A DNA stretch of 64,000 nt from Rhodospirillaceae bacterium BRH_c57 (GTDB taxonomy: Bacteria; Pseudomonadota; Alphaproteobacteria; Rhodospirillales; Rhodospirillaceae), in contig LAEA01000152.1 of the NCBI GenBank assembly GCA_000961745.1, positions 39,507 to 103,506 of the forward strand, read 5' to 3'. Position numbers and translations under genes: made by a program. This document shows positions 5,525 through 64,000 of this stretch, in pieces. The notes below the pieces were generated by a model. It saw only the letters and a program-made list of their open reading frames with translations, searched no databases and was not told the origin of the DNA. The stretch's first letter is position 1. Every line of letters begins with the position of its first letter.

Positions 5525-6589
5525 ATGCGCTACAAAGAAGGGACTAGGAACCGGGAGGTTCATGAAGTGGCACCGCACGACGTGTCGATTTCGGAATGCA
5601 CGATATTCCACGTTCAGCCCCGCTCGTCTGCATCTCGCGGCATCGGGGCGGATTCCGGGGCAAGGCGGGTGTCGATGCTCGAAACGGACTGGAAGCCCCT
5701 CGCAAAGGACAAGGCGAAGGGTGAGATCGACCCCGTGGTGGAGGTTCAGTTTCTGTTCCCCCAATGGATGGGGGAGTTCCACGAAAGCGTTCTCCTTTCC
5801 ATCCTCGCCATTGCGGCGAGGAAGAGTCCTAATGCCAGAGAATTTGTGTCGGATTTCGACACCGACGAAGAAATGGACAAGCTGATCACACTCCTCGACA
5901 GCAAGGTGAAGGGCGACCGAAAGCGACTGGACAGAATCGCACTGACCACCCAGGCTTCGCCCTTGCTGAAGTCGGCAGGGAAGTCCACCAGTGCCAAGAA
6001 CTACGAGCGCCTCCACGGAGTGCTAAAGGATCTGTCCCGCGTCAACTGTGGCTACCGCTGGAAAGCGTCGGCGGAGTCAGAGGCCTGGAGCACGGCCAGC
6101 GAAAGTCTCTTCAACTACACCTTCGATGCCGACACAGGCGAAATAAGACTGAGCCTCAGTGGCAGGATAAGCCGAATCTTTGTGCCGACCCAAGACGGCA
6201 GCCTCCTTCGCTACGTTTCGATCTCCATGTCCGAGAGGTCGAAGCTCAACGGGGACGTGGCAATCCTCCTGCACTCGCACCTCTGCCGCCTCGTCTGGGA
6301 AGGGGACGGCTGCGGCAGGCCGTCGAAGAAGTTCCGGCCCGATACCATGATGAACTACGTCTACCGGGAGCCCCCCAAGGATTCACAGGAGGCCCGCGAC
6401 CGCCGCAAGGAAATCAGGAGGGCGCTCGACGCCATAGATGCCCTTCCCGGGTGGCGGGTCACCCGGTGGAACGAAGACGCTGAGAAGAAGGGGCCGAAGG
6501 ACATGATCTATTTCATCGGACGTCTGAAGACGGGCGTAGGCGATAACGCTGGCACCCTGCTCAAGTTCGGGCAGAAAAAGAAGGGCTGA
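5525..6589 (+). CDS. Plasmid replication initiator, IncQ RepC-like
   Basis: Start chosen at the ATG with GGAG 7 bases upstream, after the predicted transcript start; 354 residues. The C-terminal half shows the winged-helix pattern of IncQ-type RepC initiators: YVSISMSERSKLNGDVAILL, then HSHLCRLVWEGDG, then a DTMMNYVYR turn, then RRKEIRRALDAIDALPGW, corresponding to the DxARLIHQRLCGW...LCGYVW...RKAL..L..LGW series. It should bind the three iterons just upstream and melt the origin. The IncQ partners RepA helicase and RepB primase are not in the window. A second, unrelated initiator lies at 38580, so the molecule is a co-integrate or multireplicon plasmid. Confidence 0.7.
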   Translation: MRYKEGTRNREVHEVAPHDVSISECTIFHVQPRSSASRGIGADSGARRVSMLETDWKPLAKDKAKGEIDPVVEVQFLFPQWMGEFHESVLLSILAIAARKSPNAREFVSDFDTDEEMDKLITLLDSKVKGDRKRLDRIALTTQASPLLKSAGKSTSAKNYERLHGVLKDLSRVNCGYRWKASAESEAWSTASESLFNYTFDADTGEIRLSLSGRISRIFVPTQDGSLLRYVSISMSERSKLNGDVAILLHSHLCRLVWEGDGCGRPSKKFRPDTMMNYVYREPPKDSQEARDRRKEIRRALDAIDALPGWRVTRWNEDAEKKGPKDMIYFIGRLKTGVGDNAGTLLKFGQKKKG

Positions 6590-6697
6590 CCCATCTCAAC
6601 TGGAGGCATCCCTGCTTTGAGGCTCCGCTGGTACGGGGCCTCTGCGGTTTTCCGGTTCTACCCCGTGTCTCTGCGGCACGACCATCTGTAAGCTGGG

Positions 6698-6726
6698 TTG
6701 ACTTTTTAACACTAATGTGCCATTGT
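6698..6726 (+). promoter_or_regulatory. Putative promoter of the multi-HTH gene
   Basis: TTGACT (6698-6703), 17 bp, CATTGT (6721-6726). The -35 context GGGTTGACTTTTTAAC departs from the shared motif after TTGAC. Confidence 0.5.
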
Positions 6727-6768
6727 GACTTCATGTAGAGGGTGTCGGACCCTAGGGAGGATAGTGGA

Positions 6769-7752
6769 ATGGGCAAGGGGAGCAGCGTTATCGTATCCCG
6801 AGGGATCGAGCTCGGCGACGTCGAGATCGCGGCGGTCGTGTCCCGACTGCTGGACGAGGGGGTGACGATCAAGGACGCGGCCGAGATGATCGGCGTGAGC
6901 CGCCCGACGATCTACAATCGGTACAAGAAGGTCGCCGACGAGCGGAAGGCCGAGATCGCTTCCGTCCTCGCGTCGTCCGACTTTGAGACCATCCGTGAGG
7001 CCGTTCTGGACATCCCGAAGGTAAAAGCCCGTGCTAAGGAGCAGCAGGAGGCCGATCACCGCGAGATGCTCCGCTTGGCCAAGGATGGCATGCCCCGTGC
7101 GGCGATCGCTGCCAAGTACGGCATCACCAAGACCCGCCTGCTCCAGATCTTCAATGAGATGGGCTACCACGGTCGCATCACGGGCATCTCCCGCGAGGGT
7201 GCGGTCGAGGAGGCCCTCGCCCTGAACGCCAAGGGCATGACCCCCGCCGGCATCGCCGTGAAGTTCGGCATCCGCCTCGACCGCCTGTTCGACGTCATGG
7301 ACGAGAAGGGTCAGCGGTTTCCCCTCCCCGACCACGCGGTCGCGATGGCCGACGCAGGGTTCTCACCGAAGGAGATCGCCCGAGCCGTCGGGTGGGAAGA
7401 GCGTCGGCTGAAGAAGGCCCTCGACGACGAAGCCGGAATCCATCTCACCTCTTACGAGGGGCACCCGCACGAGATCGAGATGCTGACCATGATCCTGCAG
7501 GGCGTGCCGAAGCAACAAATTCTCGACCGCCTTGGGGTCGGCTTCCGTGCCCTCAACGCCGCAGAGCAGCGGGCGGGCTTCCCTCCGCTGGAAGAGCATG
7601 TCCATGCGATCCGCAAAGGGGTCGCCGAAGGTCGCGGCATCGACGAGATGGCCCTCGCCCTCGGTGTCCACCGCAACCAGGTGGCAACAGTGATGGGCTG
7701 CATTTCCAACATGGAAGAGGGCGACGAACTCGCTCCGAGGGGGATGGCATGA
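6769..7752 (+). CDS. Protein built from an array of helix-turn-helix repeats
   Basis: Start at the ATG following GGGAGGATAGTGGA; 327 residues. At least five, probably six, HTH units follow one another. They are around GVTIKDAAEMIGVSRPTIYNRY, GMPRAAIAAKYGITKTRLLQ, GMTPAGIAVKFGIRLDRLFD, GFSPKEIARAVGWEERRLKK, a looser unit at QGVPKQQILDRLGVG, and GRGIDEMALALGVHRNQVAT. No oligomerisation, ligand or catalytic domain is visible. The first unit resembles the Hin-like HTHs of the VirD4-like genes at the left edge. A good terminator follows, so it is transcribed alone. A second multi-HTH protein is at 22224. Such an array could read a long DNA site or bridge repeats; function unknown. Confidence 0.75.
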   Translation: MGKGSSVIVSRGIELGDVEIAAVVSRLLDEGVTIKDAAEMIGVSRPTIYNRYKKVADERKAEIASVLASSDFETIREAVLDIPKVKARAKEQQEADHREMLRLAKDGMPRAAIAAKYGITKTRLLQIFNEMGYHGRITGISREGAVEEALALNAKGMTPAGIAVKFGIRLDRLFDVMDEKGQRFPLPDHAVAMADAGFSPKEIARAVGWEERRLKKALDDEAGIHLTSYEGHPHEIEMLTMILQGVPKQQILDRLGVGFRALNAAEQRAGFPPLEEHVHAIRKGVAEGRGIDEMALALGVHRNQVATVMGCISNMEEGDELAPRGMA

Positions 7753-7786
7753 GATTGCCCCAGGAGGACGCACCCAAGTACGAGAG

Positions 7787-7807
7787 AGGGCTTCGGCCCT
7801 TTTTTTA
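7787..7807 (+). terminator. Rho-independent terminator
   Basis: Stem AGGGC/GCCCT with a TTCG tetraloop followed by seven T. It ends the multi-HTH gene. Confidence 0.9.
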
Positions 7808-7828
7808 GCTCCATAAACGTAAAAACGC

Positions 7829-7862
7829 TTGACTTATTTGCAAAATGGTGTCACTGTATAAA
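7829..7862 (+). promoter_or_regulatory. Putative promoter upstream of a 19-codon ORF
   Basis: TTGACT (7829-7834) with CACTGT 17 bp downstream, overlapping a TATAAA (7857-7862). It lies directly before the GGGAGGGG ribosome site of the short ORF at 7892. Confidence 0.4.
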
Positions 7863-7891
7863 CATGAAAAGGCCATTGTTGGGAGGGGACG

Positions 7892-7951
7892 ATGAAAGAT
7901 ACCGCATTTAACTGTTGGCATGTATACTTAAGCGCGCTAGAAATTATATAA
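7892..7951 (+). CDS. Possible 19-residue leader peptide
   Basis: ATG after GGGAGGGGACG, an excellent ribosome site, coding for MKDTAFNCWHVYLSALEII and a TAA. It overlaps the shared-motif promoter at 7915-7943 that drives the next genes, so its translation could affect expression from that promoter, or it may be decayed. Low confidence because of size. Confidence 0.3.
   Translation: MKDTAFNCWHVYLSALEII
7915..7943 (+). promoter_or_regulatory. Shared-motif promoter for the 7993-8615 gene pair
   Basis: CTGTTGGCATGTATA: -35 TTGGCA (7915-7920), 17 bp, TAGAAA (7938-7943). Confidence 0.6.
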
Positions 7952-7992
7952 GGTGCTCGCTGTGCGGGTGGGGCTAACTTCTGGGAGGGAAG

Positions 7993-8301
7993 ATGATGGC
8001 GAAACGAGCTAGCACGAGCTACTCGACGGAGGAATGGGAGGGCTTTTTCTGGAGGCTGAGGGTCAGGCAAAGGCTGACTGTCTCGGTGATAGCGAAGAGA
8101 ACGCAGGTGGCCCCGCAGACGGCCTCGGGCCGCTTCAAGAACATCGAGGCCAGACTAATCGAGGCCCAATCCAATAACGCGAACGCGATAACCGACGAGG
8201 CCAAGACATACGGCGTCTCCGCAGAGGCTGCCGAGGAACACTTTTCCAAAGTTGCAGGGTACGTCCATCACGCTGCCCCCATAATGAAGGAGGCCGCGTG
8301 A
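7993..8301 (+). CDS. Small HTH-like protein of unknown function
   Basis: 102 residues; GGGAGGG precedes tandem ATGs. The segment VSVIAKRTQVAPQTASGRFKNIEARL looks like a helix-turn-helix of the kind found elsewhere on this plasmid. The C-terminal half is helical without recognised family. It overlaps the next gene by four bases (ATGA), so the two are translationally coupled. Confidence 0.6.
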   Translation: MMAKRASTSYSTEEWEGFFWRLRVRQRLTVSVIAKRTQVAPQTASGRFKNIEARLIEAQSNNANAITDEAKTYGVSAEAAEEHFSKVAGYVHHAAPIMKEAA

Positions 8302-38089: not shown

Positions 38090-38497
38090 CCACAAGAAGG
38101 CAGTGGATAACCCGTGTTTCGCCAGTAGAAGGCAGGAGTCCGCCAGAAGAAGGCAGTGGACAAGTGGTTCTACCGCCAGAAGAAGGCTGTGGGCAGTTTT
38201 GCCCGCCAGAAAAAGGCAGGGGATAAGTCGGAGGGCCAGTAAAAGGCAAGAGGGGTCCGACCTCCCTTTTTAACGGCGGGGAGGAGGCGAAATCGCCAGG
38301 ACACCGCCAGAAAAAGGCAGTCCCTCAGATGAGGGCAACCGCACCGTCAGAAGAGGGCAACCGCAAGCGTGCGATTCGCAGAACCTTGCCGCCGCCATGG
38401 GTTCATGGGGCAGACCGCCAGTAAAGGGCAGGCCGTTGCGGGAATCGGCGGAAGCCTGCGGGATGGCGGCATGTCACCCGCCGCCAGTAAAAGGCAA
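38090..38497 (+). repeat. About eleven iterons of replicon 2 (origin)
   Basis: The 16-mer CGCCAGWARAAGGCAG recurs, exact or nearly so, at about 38090, 38120, 38141, 38174, 38204, 38234, 38305, 38322, 38344, 38416 and 38481. AGTGGATAA at 38102 is the complement of an 8/9 DnaA box, and GGGATAAG at 38220 is similar. A GGGCTGT tandem run precedes at 37984-38010. Spacings are irregular (21-33 bp, then larger), unlike a CRISPR. The initiator gene follows directly. Confidence 0.9.
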
Positions 38498-38579
38498 GTT
38501 GCAAGCCCATGCTTTTGGCCGCAGATTTTGTGCTTATGCCGACGTCAGAGAACGGCACGATGCGTGGATGGGAGTCGCC

Positions 38580-39620
38580 ATGAGCGGCAAGGGCGTGACA
38601 GTGCGGGAGCAGCGGCGCGAGACGATGCGTCGTGCCAACGATGGGCTTGAGCGCGTGGGCGAGATCCACAGGATGGTCAAGGCCCTTGGCCGCGATCAGG
38701 CCCGAGAGATCGTTGCCGCCGAGGAAAAGGGCATCGTCGACCGCGTCCACGACTTTCTGTCCGATGAACGCCACTCCATCGGCATCACCTATTCCGGATT
38801 CTGCGTCGTGAGTTTCCCCCATCGCCAGTTGAAGTCGAAAGACGATATCTGGATGCGGTCTCAGGGCCCGTTCTCGCTCCTCATCGAACCTGGTGCGGTC
38901 TCAAAAGGGAAAAAGATCGAACGTCTCGGCGTGCCTTTCGGTTCGCGGGCACGCCTCATCATGCTGTACCTGCAGACGCAGGCTTTGAAGACGGGGTCGC
39001 CCGAAGTCGAAATCGGGTCCAGCATGCATTCGTGGCTGGATAGGATGGGTCTTCCTATCGGCGGCACGGCCTACAAGGATGTCAGGGAGCAGGCTGCCCG
39101 CATCTCCCGCTGCAAGCTGTCGTTCAACTGGAACGGTGAGTCCGAGGGTGTCGCTTGGGATGGCTTCCAGAATGATTCCATCGTGCAGAAGGGCATGAAT
39201 TTCCATGTCCCATCCGCACATGACACGCTGCAGACGAGACTCTGGGAGGACACCGTCCGCCTCTCGGACACATTCTACAAGGCACTGGAGGCACACCCTG
39301 TGCCGATTTGGGAGCCCGCCGTGCGGCAGATCAGCAACCAGTCGCTGGCCATCGATGTCTACATCTGGCTGGCGTACCGGCTGCGGGTAATCGGGGAGAA
39401 GCCCAAGCTGGTGCCGTGGGCCGATCTCCGTGATCAGTTCGGGCCGACCTATACGCGGCTGAGGGCATTCCGCGAGAACTTCGTCAAGACCCTGAAAGAC
39501 GTGTTGGCGGTGTACCCTGAGGCGAAGGTCGAGGCATCCGAGCAGGGCCTGCTCCTGCACCGCTCGCCCCCCGCCGTCCCGGAACGCAAGCTGATGGTGC
39601 TGGAAGGCCGAAAGCGGTGA
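38580..39620 (+). CDS. repA: RepA-family plasmid replication initiator (replicon 2)
   Basis: 346 residues from MSGKGVTVREQRRE; the upstream frame runs through iterons and is not used. Typical RepA (PF04796-type) features are present: HSIGITYSGFCVVSFPHRQL, FSLLIEPG, the helix-turn region RLGVPFGSRARLIMLYLQTQA, SMHSWLDRMGLPIGGTAYKDVREQAARI and the LAIDVYIWLAYRL segment. It binds the iterons immediately upstream to open the origin and control copy number. Together with parA/RHH it forms a complete, standard alphaproteobacterial replicon, probably the dominant one of this molecule. Confidence 0.88.
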   Translation: MSGKGVTVREQRRETMRRANDGLERVGEIHRMVKALGRDQAREIVAAEEKGIVDRVHDFLSDERHSIGITYSGFCVVSFPHRQLKSKDDIWMRSQGPFSLLIEPGAVSKGKKIERLGVPFGSRARLIMLYLQTQALKTGSPEVEIGSSMHSWLDRMGLPIGGTAYKDVREQAARISRCKLSFNWNGESEGVAWDGFQNDSIVQKGMNFHVPSAHDTLQTRLWEDTVRLSDTFYKALEAHPVPIWEPAVRQISNQSLAIDVYIWLAYRLRVIGEKPKLVPWADLRDQFGPTYTRLRAFRENFVKTLKDVLAVYPEAKVEASEQGLLLHRSPPAVPERKLMVLEGRKR

Positions 39621-42968: not shown

Positions 42969-44003
42969 ATGGATGAGGAAAAGGTGGCCACAAGGGGCGA
43001 GGTCACGGTCTTCGCCAGACGGAGTGAAATTGACCCACTGCTCCTCGGGGCGGCGGAGTCTGCCAAACGATACGCCTCGTTGGCCTTCTCCGAGGGCACG
43101 CGGCGTGTCTACGCATCCGCATGGAAAGCGTTCGACGACTTCTGCACCGAGCAGGGCCTGCAAAGCCTGCCTGCCAGCGGGACAACGCTCTCTCTCTGGC
43201 TCGCCCTGTTGGCCGATATGGGAATGTCGCCAAGAACCCTCCACGTCAGGGGGGCCGCCGTGCGGGCGATGCACGTCAGCACGCGGAACCCTGATGGAAA
43301 GCCCTACGATAGTCCGACCGACACGGCTGAAGTAAAACTCGTCCTCAAGGGAATTCGCAGGGAGTCCGCGAGAATGGGGCAGACCCCCGAGCAGGCCGAC
43401 CCCGTGACCGCCGACCTCTTGCGAACGGTGGCTGGCGGCATCGGTCGGGGCTCGACGATGGGAATCAGGGACGCGGCCATCGTACTCCTCGGTTTTGCCT
43501 CGGCCATGCGGAGGGGGGAGATCGCCGCCATGCGGGTCGAGCACGTCATCCCCACCGACAAGGGTCTCCTGATCCGCATCCCACTGTCAAAGGGCGACCA
43601 GGAGGGCGAAGGCCAGGCTGTCGCCGTCCCTATGGCGAGGGATCCAGGTCTGTGCCCCGTCCGTGCCCTACGGGAGTGGCTCCAAATCTTGAGGAAGGAG
43701 AACATGCTGGAGGGAAGGGTCTTCCGTGAGATCACGACGGCAGACCGTATCCTGCCCGACAGCGAGGGGCTGACGCCGGAGAGCATCGGTCGCATCGTGA
43801 GGAAACGGGCGGACGCGGTCGGTCTCGAAGGCAGGATTACCGCCCATAGCCTCAGGGCAGGCTTCGCCACGTCCGCGTTGCTGAAAGGAGCACCCATTCC
43901 CAAGGTGCGAGATCACCTAAGGCACACCGACGTCGCCACCACCATGCGATACTTTCGCGACCTGGAACGGTTCCTCGATCATCCAGGGGAGGGCCTTCTT
44001 TGA
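42969..44003 (+). CDS. Tyrosine recombinase / phage-type integrase
   Basis: 344 residues. The N-terminal SAM-like core-binding domain (EGTRRVYASAWKAFDDFCTEQ) precedes a catalytic domain with Arg I in SAMRRGEIAAM, the H-x-x-R box in HSLRAGFATSA, the second His in DHLRHTDVATTM and the Tyr nucleophile in MRYF. All catalytic residues are present. It lies at the junction between the motif-regulated backbone and the accessory island, and is the likely agent of island integration. The gap 42669-42968 upstream holds no other gene I can support. Confidence 0.93.
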   Translation: MDEEKVATRGEVTVFARRSEIDPLLLGAAESAKRYASLAFSEGTRRVYASAWKAFDDFCTEQGLQSLPASGTTLSLWLALLADMGMSPRTLHVRGAAVRAMHVSTRNPDGKPYDSPTDTAEVKLVLKGIRRESARMGQTPEQADPVTADLLRTVAGGIGRGSTMGIRDAAIVLLGFASAMRRGEIAAMRVEHVIPTDKGLLIRIPLSKGDQEGEGQAVAVPMARDPGLCPVRALREWLQILRKENMLEGRVFREITTADRILPDSEGLTPESIGRIVRKRADAVGLEGRITAHSLRAGFATSALLKGAPIPKVRDHLRHTDVATTMRYFRDLERFLDHPGEGLL

Positions 44004-54129: not shown

Positions 54130-56184
54130 TCAAACTTCGTCGGGAGTGTGTTCGGGTGGTTCCGCATATCCATCATCAGTCGCGATCCTGATCTGGACTG
54201 GCTTCCCTTCGTGGTGGAACCAAAGTTTGCAGATCTCAGCATCGTCGCTCTTGGGCCGTGGCACGGCATCGCGGACTTTGAAGGTCGTGGGCATGTTGAC
54301 GGAATTGCCGAAAATGAGGGCGTGCTGCTTGGGAAGGGATGGGAGTCGCTTCAGGACGGTGTCCGAGATGAATGGTGTCATCTGCCGGATGTGGCTGAGG
54401 TCGTCAGGATTCTGAATTCGGTGAATGACGTAGTTCGAACACTGTGACAGGACCGTTTTCGAAAGCTCGCTCGGTCGCTGGGATGCCACGGTGAGGAACA
54501 GCCCATATTTTCGGCCTTCCTTCGCGATTCGCTCGAATACCCGAGCGGCGTCGATGACATGGCCAGAGGGCCGCTCGGCTACGTATCGATGCGCTTCCTC
54601 AAGCAACAGGTTGACCGGAAGCCGGTTACGAGGATCAGCCTTTCGAAGCATGTCGAAGACGAGCCGCGACATTACAGCGGACACCACGGCCACGACCTCG
54701 TCCTCGGCATCGTTCATGTCGACGACGATGACTTGAACAGCCTTCACCAACACGTCGCCGATACGTTGGAGGCCTAGAAATTTCTCGACGAACTTGTCCA
54801 TACGACGGTCTTCGGGAGGATAGGAACTGGGGTCGCCGCGGAGGAAAGCGAACTCTTCACGCTCTCGGACCCATTTGAATCGGGTCAGCATTTGCGAGCA
54901 GTAGTCGCGGATCTGGCGGTTGCCATGGGCCTCCTCGTAAAGGAGAGCGAGGTCAAGGGCCTTCCCGAGATCGTCGAATCTGAATTCCGCCTGCTTGTAG
55001 TCTGGAAGAACGACGTTGTCTATCAGAAGGCCATTAAGCAGGTTTGCAAGCCCTTCTAATTTTTTCATTTCGCCAAAGCTTAGATCGATTATGTTCCTCA
55101 CAGCATTTAGCGAAAGCTCGTCGGTACTGAACGTCGAAAGGATGCCCGTGATACGGTCCTTCTTCGACGGTGTGCTCGCATCGCTCTGAAGAATGTGAAG
55201 CAGGCAGGACGCCAGGATGTGGTTTCGGATTCCGTTAAGGACTTCGGGACTGTTACCGGAAAACAAGGTGGCCAGACCCAACGCGGTTCTCAGGACCGGA
55301 CGCTGCGTCTTCTCGCTCGCCCTCAGGAGCAGTTCCCACTCATCGACGGTCATGAACCAGTGCGGGAGCCTGAACCTCGCAGTCGCTTCCTTATCGTCGA
55401 GGGCTGGCGGAGCTTCGGTTGCCTCGCCGCCGACCTTCAGGTAAAGGCGAGCTATCGAGGCAGGAAGCTCCGAGAAGGCTGTCCTGTATTCGCCGTTCAC
55501 GTCGAGCACGACGAATGTGGCCCCACGGGCGGGATATTCTGAACCCTTTGCGAAAACGGACTGGACTATCGACGCAACCGTACAGGACTTTCCACTACCA
55601 GTGTTGCCAAGCACGGCCACGTGACCGCCAAAAAAGGAATCAACGCGGACCTTGACATCATATCCGGAGAACACCACCGAGCGTCCGATGTCGATGGCAC
55701 GCATTCTTGTGGGGCGGGGCATCGGGAGCGGCTGCCCGCATTCCCTCGCAAGGTCTTCATCGGGAATCTTCTCTTCAGCACCATCGACGTCGAAGATGCG
55801 GTCTAGATCGTCATCGGTCGCGTAGAGGGCGTCCGAATAGAGAGTGGGAAACACGGATACGCCGAACCTGAAGCCCTCCTCGGCGGACAAAGTCCCGACA
55901 GGAACGACTTCGAGGAATCTAGCCGACAGCGTTTTGTCGAGTTCGCGTCCGTCCTTCGGCTCTCTTCTGCCGGGTTCCTTTTCGGACAGCCCTACGACCT
56001 CAGCCACCACATGGTCGGCGAGCACGGGGATCATGACGAACGAGCCGAGGCGGGCCACGTAATGAACGTCGTCGTAGCCGACCACGCGGAAGCTTTCCGT
56101 GCTGGCAAGCAATTCCACGGTGAACCGATCTGCGGCCACGGCGACGACCTTCCCGATTACCCTTTGCCGGTCATCGACGATCAT
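54130..56184 (-). CDS. herA: HerA-type hexameric ATPase/helicase of a SIR2-HerA system
   Basis: 684 residues. The HAS-barrel-like N-terminus is followed by Walker A GNTGSGKS (193-200), the strand FVVLDVNGEYRTAF, Walker B LLLEEAHRYVAE, a sensor region FLTVASQRPSELSKTVLSQC and the C-terminal R-finger segment MTPFISDTVLKRLPSLPKQHALIFG. This is the FtsK-HerA order. Its ATG overlaps the SIR2 stop (ATGA). In known SIR2-HerA defence, HerA hexamers assemble with SIR2 and the complex depletes NAD+ on phage infection. Confidence 0.95.
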   Translation of the reverse strand: MIVDDRQRVIGKVVAVAADRFTVELLASTESFRVVGYDDVHYVARLGSFVMIPVLADHVVAEVVGLSEKEPGRREPKDGRELDKTLSARFLEVVPVGTLSAEEGFRFGVSVFPTLYSDALYATDDDLDRIFDVDGAEEKIPDEDLARECGQPLPMPRPTRMRAIDIGRSVVFSGYDVKVRVDSFFGGHVAVLGNTGSGKSCTVASIVQSVFAKGSEYPARGATFVVLDVNGEYRTAFSELPASIARLYLKVGGEATEAPPALDDKEATARFRLPHWFMTVDEWELLLRASEKTQRPVLRTALGLATLFSGNSPEVLNGIRNHILASCLLHILQSDASTPSKKDRITGILSTFSTDELSLNAVRNIIDLSFGEMKKLEGLANLLNGLLIDNVVLPDYKQAEFRFDDLGKALDLALLYEEAHGNRQIRDYCSQMLTRFKWVREREEFAFLRGDPSSYPPEDRRMDKFVEKFLGLQRIGDVLVKAVQVIVVDMNDAEDEVVAVVSAVMSRLVFDMLRKADPRNRLPVNLLLEEAHRYVAERPSGHVIDAARVFERIAKEGRKYGLFLTVASQRPSELSKTVLSQCSNYVIHRIQNPDDLSHIRQMTPFISDTVLKRLPSLPKQHALIFGNSVNMPTTFKVRDAVPRPKSDDAEICKLWFHHEGKPVQIRIATDDGYAEPPEHTPDEV

Positions 56185-57560
56185 CGCTCACCCCCCGACG
56201 GTGCCGTCCCAAGCCCTTTTCGAATGAGATCGACGACGAGGCGGACGCTCTCGTCGATGCGTTCTCCGGGGAGATCGGGCAGGAATCGATCGACGACATG
56301 TTCGAAGTAATGGACACGTCGGCCTGCTGGTCCCTCTCCAGCGATCACCCAGATCCGAGGATCGTTCAATTCGATGAGTTTGCGGATGCCGGGCTGGTTG
56401 GGGTCTCCGAAAACGACGAGCCTGAAAGTCGGCACAGTCAGGGCCTGGTGAATGATCGCGTCTATGTGCGAATCACCAAAACTGTAGCCAAGCGTCACGA
56501 GCACCGTCTGTTCCCGCACGATCCTGGCCTGGAACTCCCGGAACAGGTCGGTGTAGGGCGAGGCTATGGTCGCATGGTGTTTCAACGGTGTGGGGAAGAT
56601 CATGACACCGCCGGCCAAATCAGGCGAAGGGGTCTGCACCTCGCGGATGCCGTGGATGCCCGAACCCGCATCCTCAATCCAATTGATGGAGCCATGCAGT
56701 TTGCAGAGGTAGACGTGGTTATCGACGGCCGTCCATTTCCGGCTTGAGACATCGAGTTGCTCGGCAAGCGCATATTTGAAGCTCGCAGGATTAAACATGC
56801 GTTCGATCACGCCAGAGAAGCCGTTGCAGAACGATATGCCCAATCCGTCTAAGGCCCTTTCGGAGAAGAGGTCGTAGTTGGTTGTGAATACCCACGGGCG
56901 GGGAAGGTTGCGGTCACGGTAAACCAGCTTCCTGTAGAACGCCCTGTAGACGTCCAGGACGGTTCGGTTCCCTTCGGCAAAACGTCCCTCCAAACAACGT
57001 CGTATGATGTACCGCTGTATCTTGGAAATTATCCCGTTCACGGTCTTCAGGGGATCTTCTTTGCCCGTCCGTGTTAGGATGAAACTTTGGGCATGCAAGA
57101 CGTCCATGAGCCGTTCGAGATTCGTGCGGTATTCTATTGCTGAGACGTCGATCCCGATGTCTTGGAGATAGAGTGCCTCTTCCTCCGAAAGTGCCTCGGC
57201 GGGAGCCTCGGCACCGCTATTCGGGAGGTATGCCGCTGCGAGCGCAGCCATTGTGGGGATGCCCAGCTCGACCCACTTATCCTCACCTTCGGCATCTTTT
57301 TCAGGCACCATGAACGACGAACAGCCAGCCCCAAGGAGGAAGGAGATGTTCGGCGCGTTCAGGACTTCGCCGATGCTCGCACGCACCTTCGCGACGGCGG
57401 CTTTATGGCTTTCGGCACGCTCGCGGAGTAGCCAGTCCTCATTTCCCCTGAAAAAGGCGAACCGGATCGGCTCCTTCGCATCGTCAATGGCGGAAGGCCC
57501 TGCGGCATTGTCAGCGCCACCGGCGTGGCCGTCCCCTGGCTGAGTGACCGTGTGGTTCAT
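56181..57560 (-). CDS. SIR2-domain NADase of a SIR2-HerA antiphage system
   Basis: 459 residues. SIR2 motifs: FLLGAGCSS (GAGCS 77-81), VFTTNYDLF (TTNYD 226-230) and catalytic His289 in CKLHGSINW; then VMIFPTPLKHH and TLGYSFGDSHID as in defence SIR2 proteins. The N-terminal 40 residues are Gly/Ala-rich and probably disordered. It should hydrolyse NAD+ when triggered, giving abortive infection. The operon order SIR2-HerA-exonuclease-small ORF is read from the 57560 end. Confidence 0.93.
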   Translation of the reverse strand: MNHTVTQPGDGHAGGADNAAGPSAIDDAKEPIRFAFFRGNEDWLLRERAESHKAAVAKVRASIGEVLNAPNISFLLGAGCSSFMVPEKDAEGEDKWVELGIPTMAALAAAYLPNSGAEAPAEALSEEEALYLQDIGIDVSAIEYRTNLERLMDVLHAQSFILTRTGKEDPLKTVNGIISKIQRYIIRRCLEGRFAEGNRTVLDVYRAFYRKLVYRDRNLPRPWVFTTNYDLFSERALDGLGISFCNGFSGVIERMFNPASFKYALAEQLDVSSRKWTAVDNHVYLCKLHGSINWIEDAGSGIHGIREVQTPSPDLAGGVMIFPTPLKHHATIASPYTDLFREFQARIVREQTVLVTLGYSFGDSHIDAIIHQALTVPTFRLVVFGDPNQPGIRKLIELNDPRIWVIAGEGPAGRRVHYFEHVVDRFLPDLPGERIDESVRLVVDLIRKGLGTAPSGGER

Positions 57561-59229: not shown

Positions 59230-59263
59230 ATAACGGGGTAAAATCACCTCACTTACCCGTTAT
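59230..59263 (+). promoter_or_regulatory. Inverted repeat upstream of the XRE-dynamin operon
   Basis: ATAACGGGGTAA and TTACCCGTTAT form an imperfect palindrome with a 10-11-base centre, about 15 bases before the -35 box. A related CTCACCCGTATACG lies within the promoter. Candidate operator for the XRE domain encoded at 59497. Confidence 0.55.
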
Positions 59264-59277
59264 ATGCATAAAAGGCC

Positions 59278-59306
59278 TTGCCTCACCCGTATACGCCTCA
59301 TATTAT
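59278..59306 (+). promoter_or_regulatory. Promoter of the XRE-dynamin operon
   Basis: TTGCCT (59278-59283), 17 bp, TATTAT (59301-59306). The start site would be about 56 bases before the first small gene. Confidence 0.65.
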
Positions 59307-59368: not shown

Positions 59369-59470
59369 ATGTACAAGATCATCGGATGCGCCGTCGTGTG
59401 GGGCTTTGCCCTGTTCGGCTTCAAGGAGTGGTGCGAAAAAACATACAAGTGCGACGGCGAGCACTCCTGA
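59369..59470 (+). CDS. 33-residue small membrane protein
   Basis: ATG after GGAGGCACAGC. The product begins MYKIIGCAVVWGFALFGFKE, one hydrophobic helix, and ends in a two-cysteine polar tail. It is the first gene of the XRE-dynamin operon, 26 bases before its start. Small membrane peptides are often toxins or regulators of larger membrane systems; this is inference. Confidence 0.5.
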   Translation: MYKIIGCAVVWGFALFGFKEWCEKTYKCDGEHS

Positions 59471-59496
59471 GTAGAACGATCAACGGAGTGGCCGTC

Positions 59497-61650
59497 ATGA
59501 CCGCCTTTCAATCCTTCGACCTCGCCAAGATGCGCGCCGATGCCAAGATCTCTCAGGAGGACATGGCTGCGCATCTTGGAGTTTCGCAAAGCCAAGTCTC
59601 CCGCTACGAGCAAGACCAGAACAGTGCGCCATTCGGCGTGGTCATGGCCTGGGCGCAGTTCTGCGGCGAAATCTCCACAAAACGGGGCCTGGAATACGGC
59701 ACCCCCTACAGAGATATCGGTACGCAGATCAAGCTGATGAGCGATTACGCCGAAACAGCACCCGATCCATTGGACCCTTCCCTATTCAACGATTCGCCGA
59801 CCGCCGCCAATTTTCTGCGACAGGTCCGAATTCTCGGCCGCAAGCCGCGGATTGCCATCTGCGGCCGGTTCGACCAGGGCAAGAGCCGACTGGCCAACAC
59901 CTTGATGGGCAGCGACGCCCTGCCAACGGCTTACCAGCCAGCCACAGCTATCATCAGCCTCGTGCGGCACGTCAGCACACGTCCGTCATGGCTCAAGGAA
60001 GACGTCTGGGTCATGGCCAAGGGCTTCGACCTGAACCGGGCTGATGAAGAGGCACACTGCAACGACTTCAAGATCGTGGCGGGTTCGTTCGACACCTTGA
60101 AGCAATTCGGCACCCACAACGAAGCCCAGACGGTTCGCACTGAGAAATGTTTCGCCGCCCTGGTGTTCGTTGACTCTCCTTTCCTGCTTGGCTGCGACCT
60201 TCTGGACCTGCCCGGCTACAACGGCCCAGCGGACGACCACGACAAGGCCGAATTGGCTCACAGCCTCGCGGATGTCCTGATTTATGCCTCCTCGGCTCAA
60301 GGGTTCATGGACCAGCAGGACCTGCAGTTCGTCAATGCCTTGCTGAAGCAGTTGCCGATCATCGAGGCGGAGGACGCCTCCCTTCCACTTATGCGGAACG
60401 TCTTCTTTGTGGCGACGATGGCTCGTCAAGATCCGAATGACCTCGAGGACATCATCACCAAGGCGTCTTCCCGTGCCTACAGGCACCTGCTGGAAGGTCT
60501 AGAGGGACGGAGCGGACAAATCACCCTGTCTGACTTCCAAGCCAGGTTCTTCACCTACCTCGTCGACGATCCCAGCCGTCGGCAGGCCTTCGAAGATGAT
60601 CTTAGTGACATCCTGAGCATGGTTTTCCCCGTGCAGGTGCGTCGCCGCCTCGACAACACAGTTGTCGAGCTCAAGAACTCCGCCAAGGCGTACTGCGATG
60701 GCTGGTCCGTCCGACTCGTCGATGCCTTGGAAAATCGGGATCGTGCTCAAGGTTCGCTGGAGTTGCTGGAGCGGGCGGAACCTCTTCGTCAACGTCGGCT
60801 CGGCGAGAAGACCGAGCGTGTCAACACTGCCATCGCAGAACACAAGGCTGCATCCTCCGACTTCATCAAGGTCGCCTTAAGCAAGCTGGTCGCCCCTGAC
60901 TACGTCGAGAAGCTCATCCGCGAGCGCTACGAAGACAAGAAGGAGGCACAGCAACTCGCGGCTTCCTACCTCGTCGATCACGTTCAGAATAAGCTGAATG
61001 CGTTTTTGGTCGAACGCACGCAGCAACTGATGCCCGAAATCGACGATATCCTTGCCGAATATCAGGCGGCAGGAACGTCTGCGGACGGAATGCAGGTCGG
61101 GCAGACCACCGTTCCCTTTGATGCACAAGGAGCCTTCTTCGGTGGTCTGGCTGCTGCCGGGACGGTCGGAGCCATGGCGGCTTGGGCTGCCGGTACGGCT
61201 GCAAGTGCTGGAGCAGGTGCAGCCATCTCGTTCGCTTCGATGGCTGGATTTACCGCGTCCTCAGTGGGGGCGATGGGCACGACTGGTGTGCTCGCCGCTC
61301 TTGGTGGCCCCATTACCATCGCCGTCGGGCTGGCCGTCATGTTTGGTTTGGCTGGCTACGCTTTGTTCGGTGCCTCCTGGCAGAGTCGGCTGGCCAAGAA
61401 AATCTGCGAGGCCATGAAGGAACGGCAGTTCCTCGACGTGCTGACGCAGCATTCCACGAAATATTGGGCTGATACAGCCACGGGGTTTACCCAAGGAATC
61501 GCCGCGACCGAGAAATCCTTCCAGGAGAACCTTGGCAATCTCCGGAAGCTCGTAAACGCAACCAGCCGGGACGACATGACCGCCCTGATCGCTCAGGTGG
61601 GTGCCACCAGGGATTTTTTCGGCGGCATTCCGTGGAGGCAGGGGAATTAG
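59497..61650 (+). CDS. XRE-HTH fused to a dynamin-like large GTPase
   Basis: 717 residues; start at MTAFQSFDLAKM with CGGAG upstream (frame upstream is not used). Residues 8-55 are an XRE-type HTH (ISQEDMAAHLGVSQSQVSRYEQ). Then comes a dynamin-type GTPase: G1 GRFDQGKS (123-130), G2 Thr in PATAIISLVRH, G3 DLPG (237-240) and a G4 region VFFVATMARQDPNDL that lacks a clear [NT]KxD. Long helices follow, and near residues 545-630 there is a Gly/Ala-rich hydrophobic segment able to insert in a membrane. A cytoplasmic DNA-binding domain on a membrane-remodelling GTPase is very unusual. Followed by two partner genes. Confidence 0.8.
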   Translation: MTAFQSFDLAKMRADAKISQEDMAAHLGVSQSQVSRYEQDQNSAPFGVVMAWAQFCGEISTKRGLEYGTPYRDIGTQIKLMSDYAETAPDPLDPSLFNDSPTAANFLRQVRILGRKPRIAICGRFDQGKSRLANTLMGSDALPTAYQPATAIISLVRHVSTRPSWLKEDVWVMAKGFDLNRADEEAHCNDFKIVAGSFDTLKQFGTHNEAQTVRTEKCFAALVFVDSPFLLGCDLLDLPGYNGPADDHDKAELAHSLADVLIYASSAQGFMDQQDLQFVNALLKQLPIIEAEDASLPLMRNVFFVATMARQDPNDLEDIITKASSRAYRHLLEGLEGRSGQITLSDFQARFFTYLVDDPSRRQAFEDDLSDILSMVFPVQVRRRLDNTVVELKNSAKAYCDGWSVRLVDALENRDRAQGSLELLERAEPLRQRRLGEKTERVNTAIAEHKAASSDFIKVALSKLVAPDYVEKLIRERYEDKKEAQQLAASYLVDHVQNKLNAFLVERTQQLMPEIDDILAEYQAAGTSADGMQVGQTTVPFDAQGAFFGGLAAAGTVGAMAAWAAGTAASAGAGAAISFASMAGFTASSVGAMGTTGVLAALGGPITIAVGLAVMFGLAGYALFGASWQSRLAKKICEAMKERQFLDVLTQHSTKYWADTATGFTQGIAATEKSFQENLGNLRKLVNATSRDDMTALIAQVGATRDFFGGIPWRQGN

Positions 61651-61771
61651 TTTACGCCGTCTGGCGTGATGCCTCTGCTCTCACAAACCTCACAATCCGA
61701 GAAACTGCATCCGGTCAGGTGTGCCTGCATAAGGCGGGAACCGTGTGCCTATGCGAAGGGACGGGAAAAAC

Positions 61772-62623
61772 ATGCTCAACGGTGACATGAAGAAAGAGGC
61801 CATCTCGGCCCTGAAGGATGCTCAGAAGAAGCACGAAGCCGAAGCAATTTATGTGGGCAGCGCTTCCACGAAGCTGTTCAACCTACGCAAGTCCAGCAGC
61901 GAGCAGGTCATCGGGCAGGTGGAGGAGTACGTAAACGGCCTCGCCAACTCGCCCAAGGAGTTCGACAAAACCTTCGCTGAGTACCGAGCTGAATTTTCGG
62001 TGTTCGACGAGATCGTGACGGTGATCGAGGAGGAGGCCGCAAAGACCAACACCCAGGCGGGTGCCGGTGCGGCTGCGGGTGTCGCGGCTGGAGTGGGTGT
62101 CGCTGCCTTCGCCCCGACTGCGGCCATGGCCATTGCAACGACGTTCGGTACGGCCAGTACTGGTACTGCGATTTCGGCCCTGACAGGGGCGGCCGCCACC
62201 AAGGCAGCGTTGGCATGGCTCGGTGGCGGTGCGTTGGCAGCGGGTGGCGGTGGCATGGTGGCAGGGCAAGCCTTCCTGGCTCTTGCGGGTCCAGTCGGTT
62301 GGGCGATTGGCGGCACAACTCTTCTGACAGCTGGCTTGTTTGCCCGCAGTCGGAATCGGACCATCGCCGAGAACGCGACGACCGAGATGAAGATAATTCA
62401 GACGCACATCGCAGCACTCACGGCAGCCAAGGTCGAGATCAACCGCCTCGTCAGCCTTACGGAACGTCATGTGGACGGCGTGACCGTCCTGTTGGCTCAA
62501 TTACAGGAGCGGGCACCCGGCAACTACCAGGAATTCAATACCGTCCAGAAGGAATGGCTGGCCTCGCTGATTAACCACATCCACTCCTTGTCTGAACTCC
62601 TGAACAAGAAGGTGCAGGAATGA
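61772..62623 (+). CDS. Membrane-active partner of the dynamin-like GTPase
   Basis: 283 residues. An N-terminal helical part (KKEAISALKDAQKKHEAEAI) precedes a 120-residue Ala/Gly-rich hydrophobic hairpin region (GVAAGVGVAAFAPTAAMAIA, VAGQAFLALAGPVGWAIGG). Coiled-coil-like helices follow (TTEMKIIQTHIAALTAAKVEI). The layout resembles the hydrophobic paddle proteins that pair with bacterial dynamins. It overlaps the next gene by ATGA. No close family recognised. Confidence 0.65.
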   Translation: MLNGDMKKEAISALKDAQKKHEAEAIYVGSASTKLFNLRKSSSEQVIGQVEEYVNGLANSPKEFDKTFAEYRAEFSVFDEIVTVIEEEAAKTNTQAGAGAAAGVAAGVGVAAFAPTAAMAIATTFGTASTGTAISALTGAAATKAALAWLGGGALAAGGGGMVAGQAFLALAGPVGWAIGGTTLLTAGLFARSRNRTIAENATTEMKIIQTHIAALTAAKVEINRLVSLTERHVDGVTVLLAQLQERAPGNYQEFNTVQKEWLASLINHIHSLSELLNKKVQE

Positions 62624-63465
62624 CCGACGCTAAAATCCGCGGTCATCGACTGGTGCAGGACCAGGCAGCAGGTGTCGTCGTTCAGGCCATGAACGAGGCC
62701 CGACTGCACGCCGAAGCCATCAAGTTGGCTGTGCAGGATGCCGCATTCAAGACGGCGGTGGAGCAGATCGACAAAGTTCGCGACTTCCTTACCCGCCCCC
62801 AGAACATCCTGGGAAGCGTGTTGACGAAGCACGGAGAAATTGCCGAGCAGGTCGATGTGGGCATCCGCAACGCCCGTCAAGCTCTGGAGCAGGAAGCAAT
62901 GACGGCTTCCATGGACGGCGTCGGACGGTTGGATGCCATCGACTACTTCATTGACGGGGTGGCGGTTCAGTCCAAGTTCATCAATGGTATCCCCAAAAAC
63001 CTCCAGCATGTCCTGTACCACCTGGACAAGTATCCGAATTTCACCGCCGACGGCTCATACTACATCATTCCTAAAGACACCCATGAAGCTCTTCAGACCC
63101 TGATGAACGGTGGCCATATTGATGGTCTGAAAGCCTCGAAAGAGGTGGCTATCAAGGAACTGATCAAGAGGATCGAGGAGCAGACGGGGAGGCCGTTCAT
63201 CGACGTGGTCCAGCCGTCCGTCGTCGATTACCCCGATGTCCAAATCCGCACCGTCTCCACCACACTGGACAACGAACAGCAGGACCTCGCCAGCAAGAAC
63301 GAGGAACTCCAAGACAAAATCATCGATGACCACAAGCCGTCCCTCCAGGGGGCTGCTCAGGCGGCTCTCCTCGGTGGAGCCGTAGGTGGTTCGCTGTCCC
63401 TGGCGACGGGGCTGTATTCCAAGTACAAGGGGTCATCGCAGAATCTTCCCGAAATCGTACGCTAA
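62620..63465 (+). CDS. Third protein of the XRE-dynamin operon
   Basis: 281 residues, coupled to the preceding gene by ATGA. It is helical throughout, with coiled-coil propensity (AVEQIDKVRDFLTRPQNI, TLDNEQQDLASKNEELQDKI). The C-terminus has a short Gly/Ala-rich hydrophobic stretch (AAQAALLGGAVGGSLSLATGL) that could be a membrane anchor. No known family. Likely structural partner or effector of the GTPase. Confidence 0.65.
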   Translation: MTDAKIRGHRLVQDQAAGVVVQAMNEARLHAEAIKLAVQDAAFKTAVEQIDKVRDFLTRPQNILGSVLTKHGEIAEQVDVGIRNARQALEQEAMTASMDGVGRLDAIDYFIDGVAVQSKFINGIPKNLQHVLYHLDKYPNFTADGSYYIIPKDTHEALQTLMNGGHIDGLKASKEVAIKELIKRIEEQTGRPFIDVVQPSVVDYPDVQIRTVSTTLDNEQQDLASKNEELQDKIIDDHKPSLQGAAQAALLGGAVGGSLSLATGLYSKYKGSSQNLPEIVR

Positions 63466-63497: not shown

Positions 63498-64000
63498 TCA
63501 GGCGGCATCCAGAATCGATGCATTCGGATTGCGCAAGGGACGGAAGCCGTCCTTGATGGGCTCGGTCGGCCAGATGTAGTCGCCATTGAAGTTGATGTGT
63601 TCCCAGCCGAGTGGCGCAATATGGGCCAGCAATTCGTCGGGGAGATCAACCCCGGCCGACCGTAGTTCGGCGGCGGCGCGGCTCAGGTAGGTGGTGTTCC
63701 AGAGGATGATCGCAGCGACAGCGAGGTTGAGGCCGGACGCCCGATAGCGCTGGTTCTCGAACGTCCTGTCCCGGATCTCGCCGTGGCGATGAAAGAACAG
63801 GGTCCGGGCCAGGGCATTCCGGGCCTCCCCTTTGTTCAGGCCGGCGTTCGACCGGCGGCGCAGCGCCGGGTCGGTAATCCAGTCGAGGGTAAACAATGTC
63901 CGCTCCACGCGGCCTATCTCGCGTAGCGCCTTTGCCAAGGCATTCTGTCGAGGGTAGGCGGCGAGCCGACGCAGGATCGCCGATGGCGCCACGGTACCGG
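63498..64000 (-). CDS. tnpA: Tn3-family transposase, C-terminal part (continues beyond the window)
   Basis: The frame is open to the right edge. Diagnostic Tn3 TnpA C-terminus: [61 protein letters not shown] and [18 protein letters not shown]. The final DDE glutamate region (NKGEARN) is present. It marks a Tn3-type transposon lying mainly outside the window. I could not identify a terminal inverted repeat within the visible DNA. Confidence 0.93.

What the first reader, a model, noticed from the sequence alone, without database searches (positions are those of the whole stretch)
59369..63465. XRE-HTH/dynamin fusion with two membrane or coiled-coil partners
A 717-residue protein joins an XRE DNA-binding domain to a dynamin-like GTPase with a Gly/Ala-rich membrane segment. 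It is followed by two coupled genes for hydrophobic/coiled-coil proteins and preceded by a 33-residue membrane peptide. A palindrome lies just upstream of the promoter and could be the XRE site. A membrane-remodelling GTPase that can sit on its own promoter suggests release on infection or membrane damage. It lies in a defence-rich island beside SIR2-HerA and a Tn3 transposon.
Basis: partly seen in the sequence, partly recalled or inferred. Interest (0 to 1): 0.8.

Follow-up and report, generated by a model that had tools for sequence, protein, structure and literature searches.

The report
Dynamin-linked membrane-nuclease defence operon, transposon-cut
A bacterial gene set, probably an anti-virus defence, couples a DNA-binding membrane-remodelling GTPase to a predicted membrane-anchored DNA-cutting enzyme and its partner; in this genome a jumping gene has cut off the anchor half of the cutting enzyme, so this copy is probably damaged.

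Summary
A 717-aa XRE-HTH/dynamin fusion (59497-61647) is followed by two overlapping genes, but the second is truncated: a Tn3 inverted repeat begins at 63429 and supplies its last codons and stop. Intact relatives are about 475-505 aa; this copy has 281. The partners are PADLOC's untested candidate pair PDC-M09A/PDC-M09B (E 1e-113, 2e-100). The fusion is no sequencing error: it recurs in Acinetobacter, Carboxydocella, Lactiplantibacillus, Lactococcus, P2-like Vibrio phages and three alphaproteobacterial loci. The A-B pair is nearly universal (about 70 loci, many phyla); the dynamin is an optional third gene, joined to A-B at three separate tree positions. New inferences: M09A is a GTPase-less relative of the dynamin stalk/membrane region; M09B is a predicted PD-(D/E)XK-type nuclease with a C-terminal membrane module, and relatives carry an HNH-like or BnzB (Bunzi) N-terminus instead. 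Best reading: an anti-phage system in which GTPase and M09A organise a membrane-tethered nuclease and the HTH regulates the operon. No activity is shown; this copy is probably defective.

The parts
59255..59290 (+). Candidate operator: direct repeat ACCCG at 59255 and 59285 (30 bp apart); the second copy lies in the spacer of the predicted promoter (-35 TTGCCT at 59278, -10 TATTAT ending 59306)
   Evidence: Same 30-bp spacing in L025 and L027 although the surrounding DNA has diverged; promoter scan (1 found, 1.3 expected, so the promoter rests on position and conservation)
59230..59263 (.).
   Evidence: Present but left arm absent in L025 and L027
59369..59470 (+). 33-aa hydrophobic peptide MYKIIGCAVVWGFALFGFKEW...
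   Evidence: Orthologues upstream of the dynamin in L025 and L027, not found in L026
59497..61650 (+). XRE-HTH/dynamin-like GTPase, 717 aa; P-loop GRFDQGKS, DLPG; Gly/Ala membrane segment about 546-628
   Evidence: Pfam HTH_3 and Dynamin_N; partial match to LeoBC/LeoA models; dN/dS about 0.15 against three relatives
61772..62623 (+). PDC-M09A homologue, about 283 aa: helical bundle flanking a Gly/Ala membrane hairpin; GTPase-less relative of the dynamin stalk/membrane region
   Evidence: PADLOC PDC-M09A E 1e-113; hhalign with HTH-dynamin res 424-722 E 1e-8 against 1e-3 to 5e-2 in controls; structure model
62620..63426 (+). PDC-M09B, residues 1-269: predicted PD-(D/E)XK-type nuclease domain (E76, D108, Q117-x-K119)
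   Evidence: PADLOC PDC-M09B E 2e-100; invariant E, D, QxK in 54 relatives; alpha-beta-beta-beta-alpha-beta order in the model of L027 B
63427..63465 (+). Artificial end of M09B read from the Tn3 inverted repeat; native C-terminal membrane module missing
   Evidence: Junction alignment with L025-L027
63429..63466 (+). 38-bp Tn3-family terminal inverted repeat (outer end GGGG)
   Evidence: 100% identical 573-bp copy on contig C144 with another flank, plus further IR copies
63498..63998 (-). C-terminal part of the Tn3 transposase (contig ends here)
   Evidence: Pfam DDE_Tnp_Tn3 E 6e-56; contig ends at window end

Best explanation
The locus is a dynamin-containing variant of the candidate anti-phage pair PDC-M09A/B, carried in a defence island and cut by a Tn3 transposon. 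Shown by sequence: a GTPase fused to an HTH; a GTPase-less stalk/membrane protein (M09A); a predicted nuclease whose relatives end in a hydrophobic module (M09B, module lost here); purifying selection on all three. Inferred mechanism: in resting cells the HTH keeps the operon low by binding the ACCCG direct repeat across the promoter; on phage entry or membrane disturbance the dynamin and M09A assemble at the inner membrane through their Gly/Ala hairpins and recruit or activate membrane-tethered M09B, which cuts DNA at the site of injection (or the cell's own DNA, giving abortive infection). In this genome M09B keeps its nuclease core but has lost the membrane module, so the system is probably inactive or mis-regulated.
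For: PDC-M09A/B matches. A-B adjacency in about 70 of 84 loci, A upstream of B and usually overlapping or close. HTH-dynamin beside A-B at three separate positions on the M09A tree (contexts). A stand-alone HTH-dynamin lies between replication gene A and the portal gene of Vibrio P2-like phages, which is the old/tin anti-phage hotspot (PMC9122126), and another follows hsdS on L. lactis pIL7. A-B lies near type I R-M, GajB-, PtuA- and AriA-type genes and integrases in some loci and in phage contigs. Nuclease: E, D, QxK invariant in 54 sequences, matching order of fold elements, HNH-like motif in the same place in Paenibacillus. C-terminus shared with BnzB-type proteins. M09A/dynamin homology. 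Purifying selection.
Against: No phage-protection data for PDC-M09 or for HTH-dynamins were found. Fold searches gave no significant match for M09A or M09B, so the nuclease call rests on motif and secondary-structure order. Most A-B loci lack a dynamin and several HTH-dynamins lack A-B, so functional coupling is inferred. In Lactococcus the dynamin and A-B are convergent, not one operon. Poribacteria L051 shows only the dynamin C-terminus. The neighbour tally has no matched background and covers only 92 chosen genes.
Confidence: 0.5

Rival explanations
1. Independent neighbours: M09A/B is one defence module and the HTH-dynamin another (as in Vibrio P2-like phages and Acinetobacter plasmids); they travel together because both are defence cargo, without physical coupling.
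For: Stand-alone HTH-dynamins; A-B without dynamin in most loci; convergent arrangement in Lactococcus.
Against: Same strand, about 95-160 bp spacing and same order in window, L025, L026, L027 and L051; association at three tree positions; M09A is itself related to the dynamin stalk.
Confidence: 0.3
2. Pore or depolarisation effector: M09A and M09B form a membrane-permeabilising complex that kills infected cells; the E-D-QxK residues are structural rather than nucleolytic.
For: Gly/Ala hairpins in all components; the weak top Foldseek rows of M09A are ClyA-type pore formers (E 0.46, not significant); the BnzB-type N-terminus is not an evident nuclease.
Against: Strict invariance of E, D, Q, K and swapping with an HNH-like motif point to nuclease chemistry.
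Confidence: 0.12
3. Membrane maintenance rather than defence (DynA-like support of damaged membrane), regulated by the HTH.
For: B. subtilis DynA acts in membrane surveillance and delays lysis (PMC8844932); ter-cluster neighbours in Klebsiella.
Against: Patchy distribution (2 of 98 relatives at E<=0.001, one being the window itself; no further clear case in 398 Pseudomonadota), mobile and phage contexts, nuclease-like partner.
Confidence: 0.08

Closest known systems
PDC-M09 (PADLOC phage-defence candidate, M09A + M09B)
   Same: Both partner genes match its models, M09A full length and M09B up to the transposon
   Different: An HTH-dynamin is added upstream; M09B is truncated here; no published function for the candidate was found
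LeoABC-type bacterial dynamin defence (called Eleos in DefenseFinder, from memory)
   Same: Dynamin-superfamily GTPase with partial similarity to LeoBC/LeoA models (E 2e-11, 7e-9)
   Different: N-terminal XRE-HTH, no second GTPase, partners are M09A/B rather than LeoB/LeoC
Bunzi (BnzA/BnzB)
   Same: In clostridia M09A sits beside proteins that match BnzB (E 2e-130) and whose C-terminus matches M09B; TerB-like genes occur beside several M09A-B loci
   Different: The window's M09B has another N-terminal domain; no TerB gene or BnzB match in this operon
Bacillus subtilis DynA
   Same: Bacterial dynamin that protects against phage at population level (PMC8844932)
   Different: No HTH or nuclease partner known (from memory); acts late, delaying lysis

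Membership tests
PDC-M09 | M09A homologue | tested here: met
   E 1e-113, residues 10-291 on profile 1-281 of 282
PDC-M09 | Full-length M09B homologue adjacent and downstream | tested here: not met
   Adjacent, E 2e-100, but only profile 5-268 of 480; C-terminus removed by Tn3. Met in L025-L027
PDC-M09 | Phage protection | not testable with these tools
   No experiment possible; no paper found
Bacterial dynamin-like protein | Dynamin_N GTPase domain with P-loop and DxPG | tested here: met
   Pfam E 3e-11, above cut-off; GRFDQGKS and DLPG in the sequence
Bacterial dynamin-like protein | Hydrophobic membrane segment in the stalk region | tested here: met
   Hydropathy segments within 546-628
LeoABC | LeoA plus LeoB/LeoC (LeoBC) partner genes | tested here: not met
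   Only partial matches within P0001; the neighbours are M09A/B
PD-(D/E)XK nuclease | E...D...(D/E/Q)xK residues conserved | tested here: met
   E78, D110, Q119, K121 invariant in 54 sequences
PD-(D/E)XK nuclease | Core fold shown by structural match | tested here: inconclusive
   Model has the expected order of elements but no significant PDB match
Bunzi | BnzA and BnzB genes | tested here: not met
   No Bnz match for P0001-P0003; BnzB-type partners only in relatives

The most novel reading that the evidence does not exclude
A one-polypeptide switch: a dynamin GTPase that is also its operon's repressor leaves DNA for the membrane on infection, derepressing and at the same time assembling a membrane-tethered nuclease whose partner (M09A) is a GTPase-less relative of the dynamin stalk.
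Probability: 0.2. Interest if true: 0.78.

Novelty: new variant of a known kind. Interest (0 to 1): 0.52.

Why it matters
It gives testable roles to an untested candidate defence pair, links three separately named things (dynamin defence, PDC-M09, Bunzi) through shared membrane modules and swapped N-terminal domains, and offers a case where membrane remodelling and DNA cutting may be coupled in bacterial immunity.

Tried and rejected
Palindrome 59230-59263 as operator: left arm not conserved. Sequencing-error fusion: rejected, the HTH is fused in all eight relatives examined. Remaining part of M09B elsewhere in the genome: no hit, but the assembly is 82% complete, so inconclusive. Fold searches of M09A and M09B: no significant match; ClyA-type and Can2 rows are too weak to use. 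PHROGs: only HTH hits for the fusion. Literature searches for PDC-M09 and HTH-dynamins: nothing. A broader genome search for HTH-dynamins in Pseudomonadota found no further clear case.

Full report
WHAT IS THERE. The window holds a 717-residue protein at 59497-61647 with an N-terminal Cro/CI-type HTH (HTH_3, E 9e-9) and a Dynamin_N GTPase domain (E 3e-11). Next come a gene ending at 62623 (start most likely ATG 61772, by alignment with relatives) and a gene at 62620-63465 that overlaps it by ATGA. PADLOC names these PDC-M09A (E 1e-113) and PDC-M09B (E 2e-100), and confirms SIR2 and HerA at 56181-57560 and 54130-56184.

THE THIRD GENE IS CUT. Only residues 5-271 of the third protein match, against M09B models of 385-486 positions. 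Aligned with three close relatives, homology stops at the codon 63427-63429; from 63429 the DNA is a 38-bp Tn3-family inverted repeat that supplies the last residues and the TAA stop. The stretch from that point to the contig end (573 bp) is present at 100% identity on another contig with a different outer flank, and further copies of the repeat occur in the genome. The transposase C-terminus follows at 63498-63998. Relatives continue for about 210 more residues with Gly/Ala-rich hydrophobic helices.

THE FUSION IS REAL. The HTH is fused to the GTPase in plasmid-borne relatives of Acinetobacter (cut or frameshifted near its end), Carboxydocella, Lactiplantibacillus and Lactococcus, in a P2-like phage contig, and in three alphaproteobacterial-type loci L025-L027. 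dN/dS against these three is about 0.15-0.16 for the dynamin, 0.11 for M09A and 0.15-0.17 for the native part of M09B (ratios of the values). The 33-aa peptide is conserved in L025 and L027 but not found in L026.

CONSERVATION OF THE NEIGHBOURS. A scan of about 85,000 species genomes with M09A gave 75 loci. M09B follows M09A in nearly all. The HTH-dynamin lies directly upstream in L025, L026 and L027, its C-terminus directly upstream in Poribacteria L051 (contig edge), and convergent to B-A in Lactococcus plasmids. On the M09A tree this needs three changes. HTH-dynamins are rare, so repeated adjacency is unlikely by chance, although clustering of defence genes would raise it. Other M09A-B loci have a WYL regulator upstream or a TerB-like gene downstream.

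WHAT THE PARTNERS ARE. M09A: a profile comparison aligns it with residues 424-722 of the HTH-dynamin family (probability 95.6, E 1e-8); reversed or block-shuffled controls give E 1e-3 to 5e-2. It therefore looks like a dynamin stalk and membrane region without the GTPase. Its model is a long helical bundle with an unresolved Gly/Ala hairpin. M09B: in 54 sequences the invariant residues are G67, G74, E78, D110, Q119, K121 and Y206 (L027 numbering). The model puts E78 in a helix followed by strands holding D110 and Q119-x-K121, a helix and a strand, the order expected of PD-(D/E)XK nucleases (general knowledge). No significant structural match was found, so this is a prediction. In Paenibacillus the same position and C-terminus carry an HNH-like motif (DYTGK...HxDHIVSA...N...NxSK; weak GmrSD_C match, E 0.03). 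In clostridia they carry a BnzB-type domain (E 2e-130) with an M09B-type C-terminus. M09B is thus modular: different N-terminal domains joined to one C-terminal membrane module, the module lost in the window.

DEFENCE CONTEXT. In Vibrio cyclitrophicus P2-like phages the dynamin sits between replication gene A and the portal gene, the locus that in P2 holds old and tin and that is described as a hotspot of anti-phage systems (PMC9122126). On L. lactis pIL7 a relative follows hsdS. Among 92 neighbours of M09A-B, PADLOC families include type I R-M, GajB, PtuA and AriA, each in one or two members; there is no matched background for this tally. M09A-B also lies in phage contigs, in L101 among genes that look like antiterminator, NinG and repressor genes by eye.

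REGULATION. A plausible sigma-70 promoter (TTGCCT-17-TATTAT, 59278-59306) precedes the peptide. ACCCG occurs at 59255 and 59285, and with the same 30-bp spacing in L025 and L027, the second copy inside the promoter spacer. This is a better operator candidate than the palindrome. The three sequences are close relatives, so the conservation is suggestive only.

CONCLUSION. A dynamin-linked variant of a candidate defence pair, probably acting as a membrane-organised nuclease, damaged here by Tn3. Anatomy, truncation and conservation are shown; the mechanism is inferred.

Noticed in passing
L056, L057, L060, L064 (Paenibacillus), downstream of M09A: M09B-like proteins with an HNH-like N-terminal motif; L056 matches PADLOC PDC-M40B (E 2e-75) plus the M09B C-terminus, linking two PADLOC candidates
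   Followed up: partly
L076, L085, L090, L104, L095, L092: M09A beside BnzB-type proteins (tested in L076, L104, L095) whose C-terminus matches M09B: a link between Bunzi and PDC-M09
   Followed up: partly
L018 (Klebsiella plasmid) 6001-8297: M09A-B pair a few kb from a tellurite-resistance (ter) cluster on a Klebsiella plasmid; 46 Klebsiella plasmid records hold M09A. A related pair is in 6 of 5426 E. coli genomes
   Followed up: no
L024:8932-9471 and L021:7014-7610: Short uncharacterised genes directly downstream of stand-alone HTH-dynamins in a P2-like phage contig and a Carboxydocella plasmid; no PADLOC match for either
   Followed up: no
window 38397-39620: RepA_C plasmid replication protein, with a phage-type integrase at 42969-44003: the contig is probably a plasmid or a plasmid-like integrated element
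   Followed up: no
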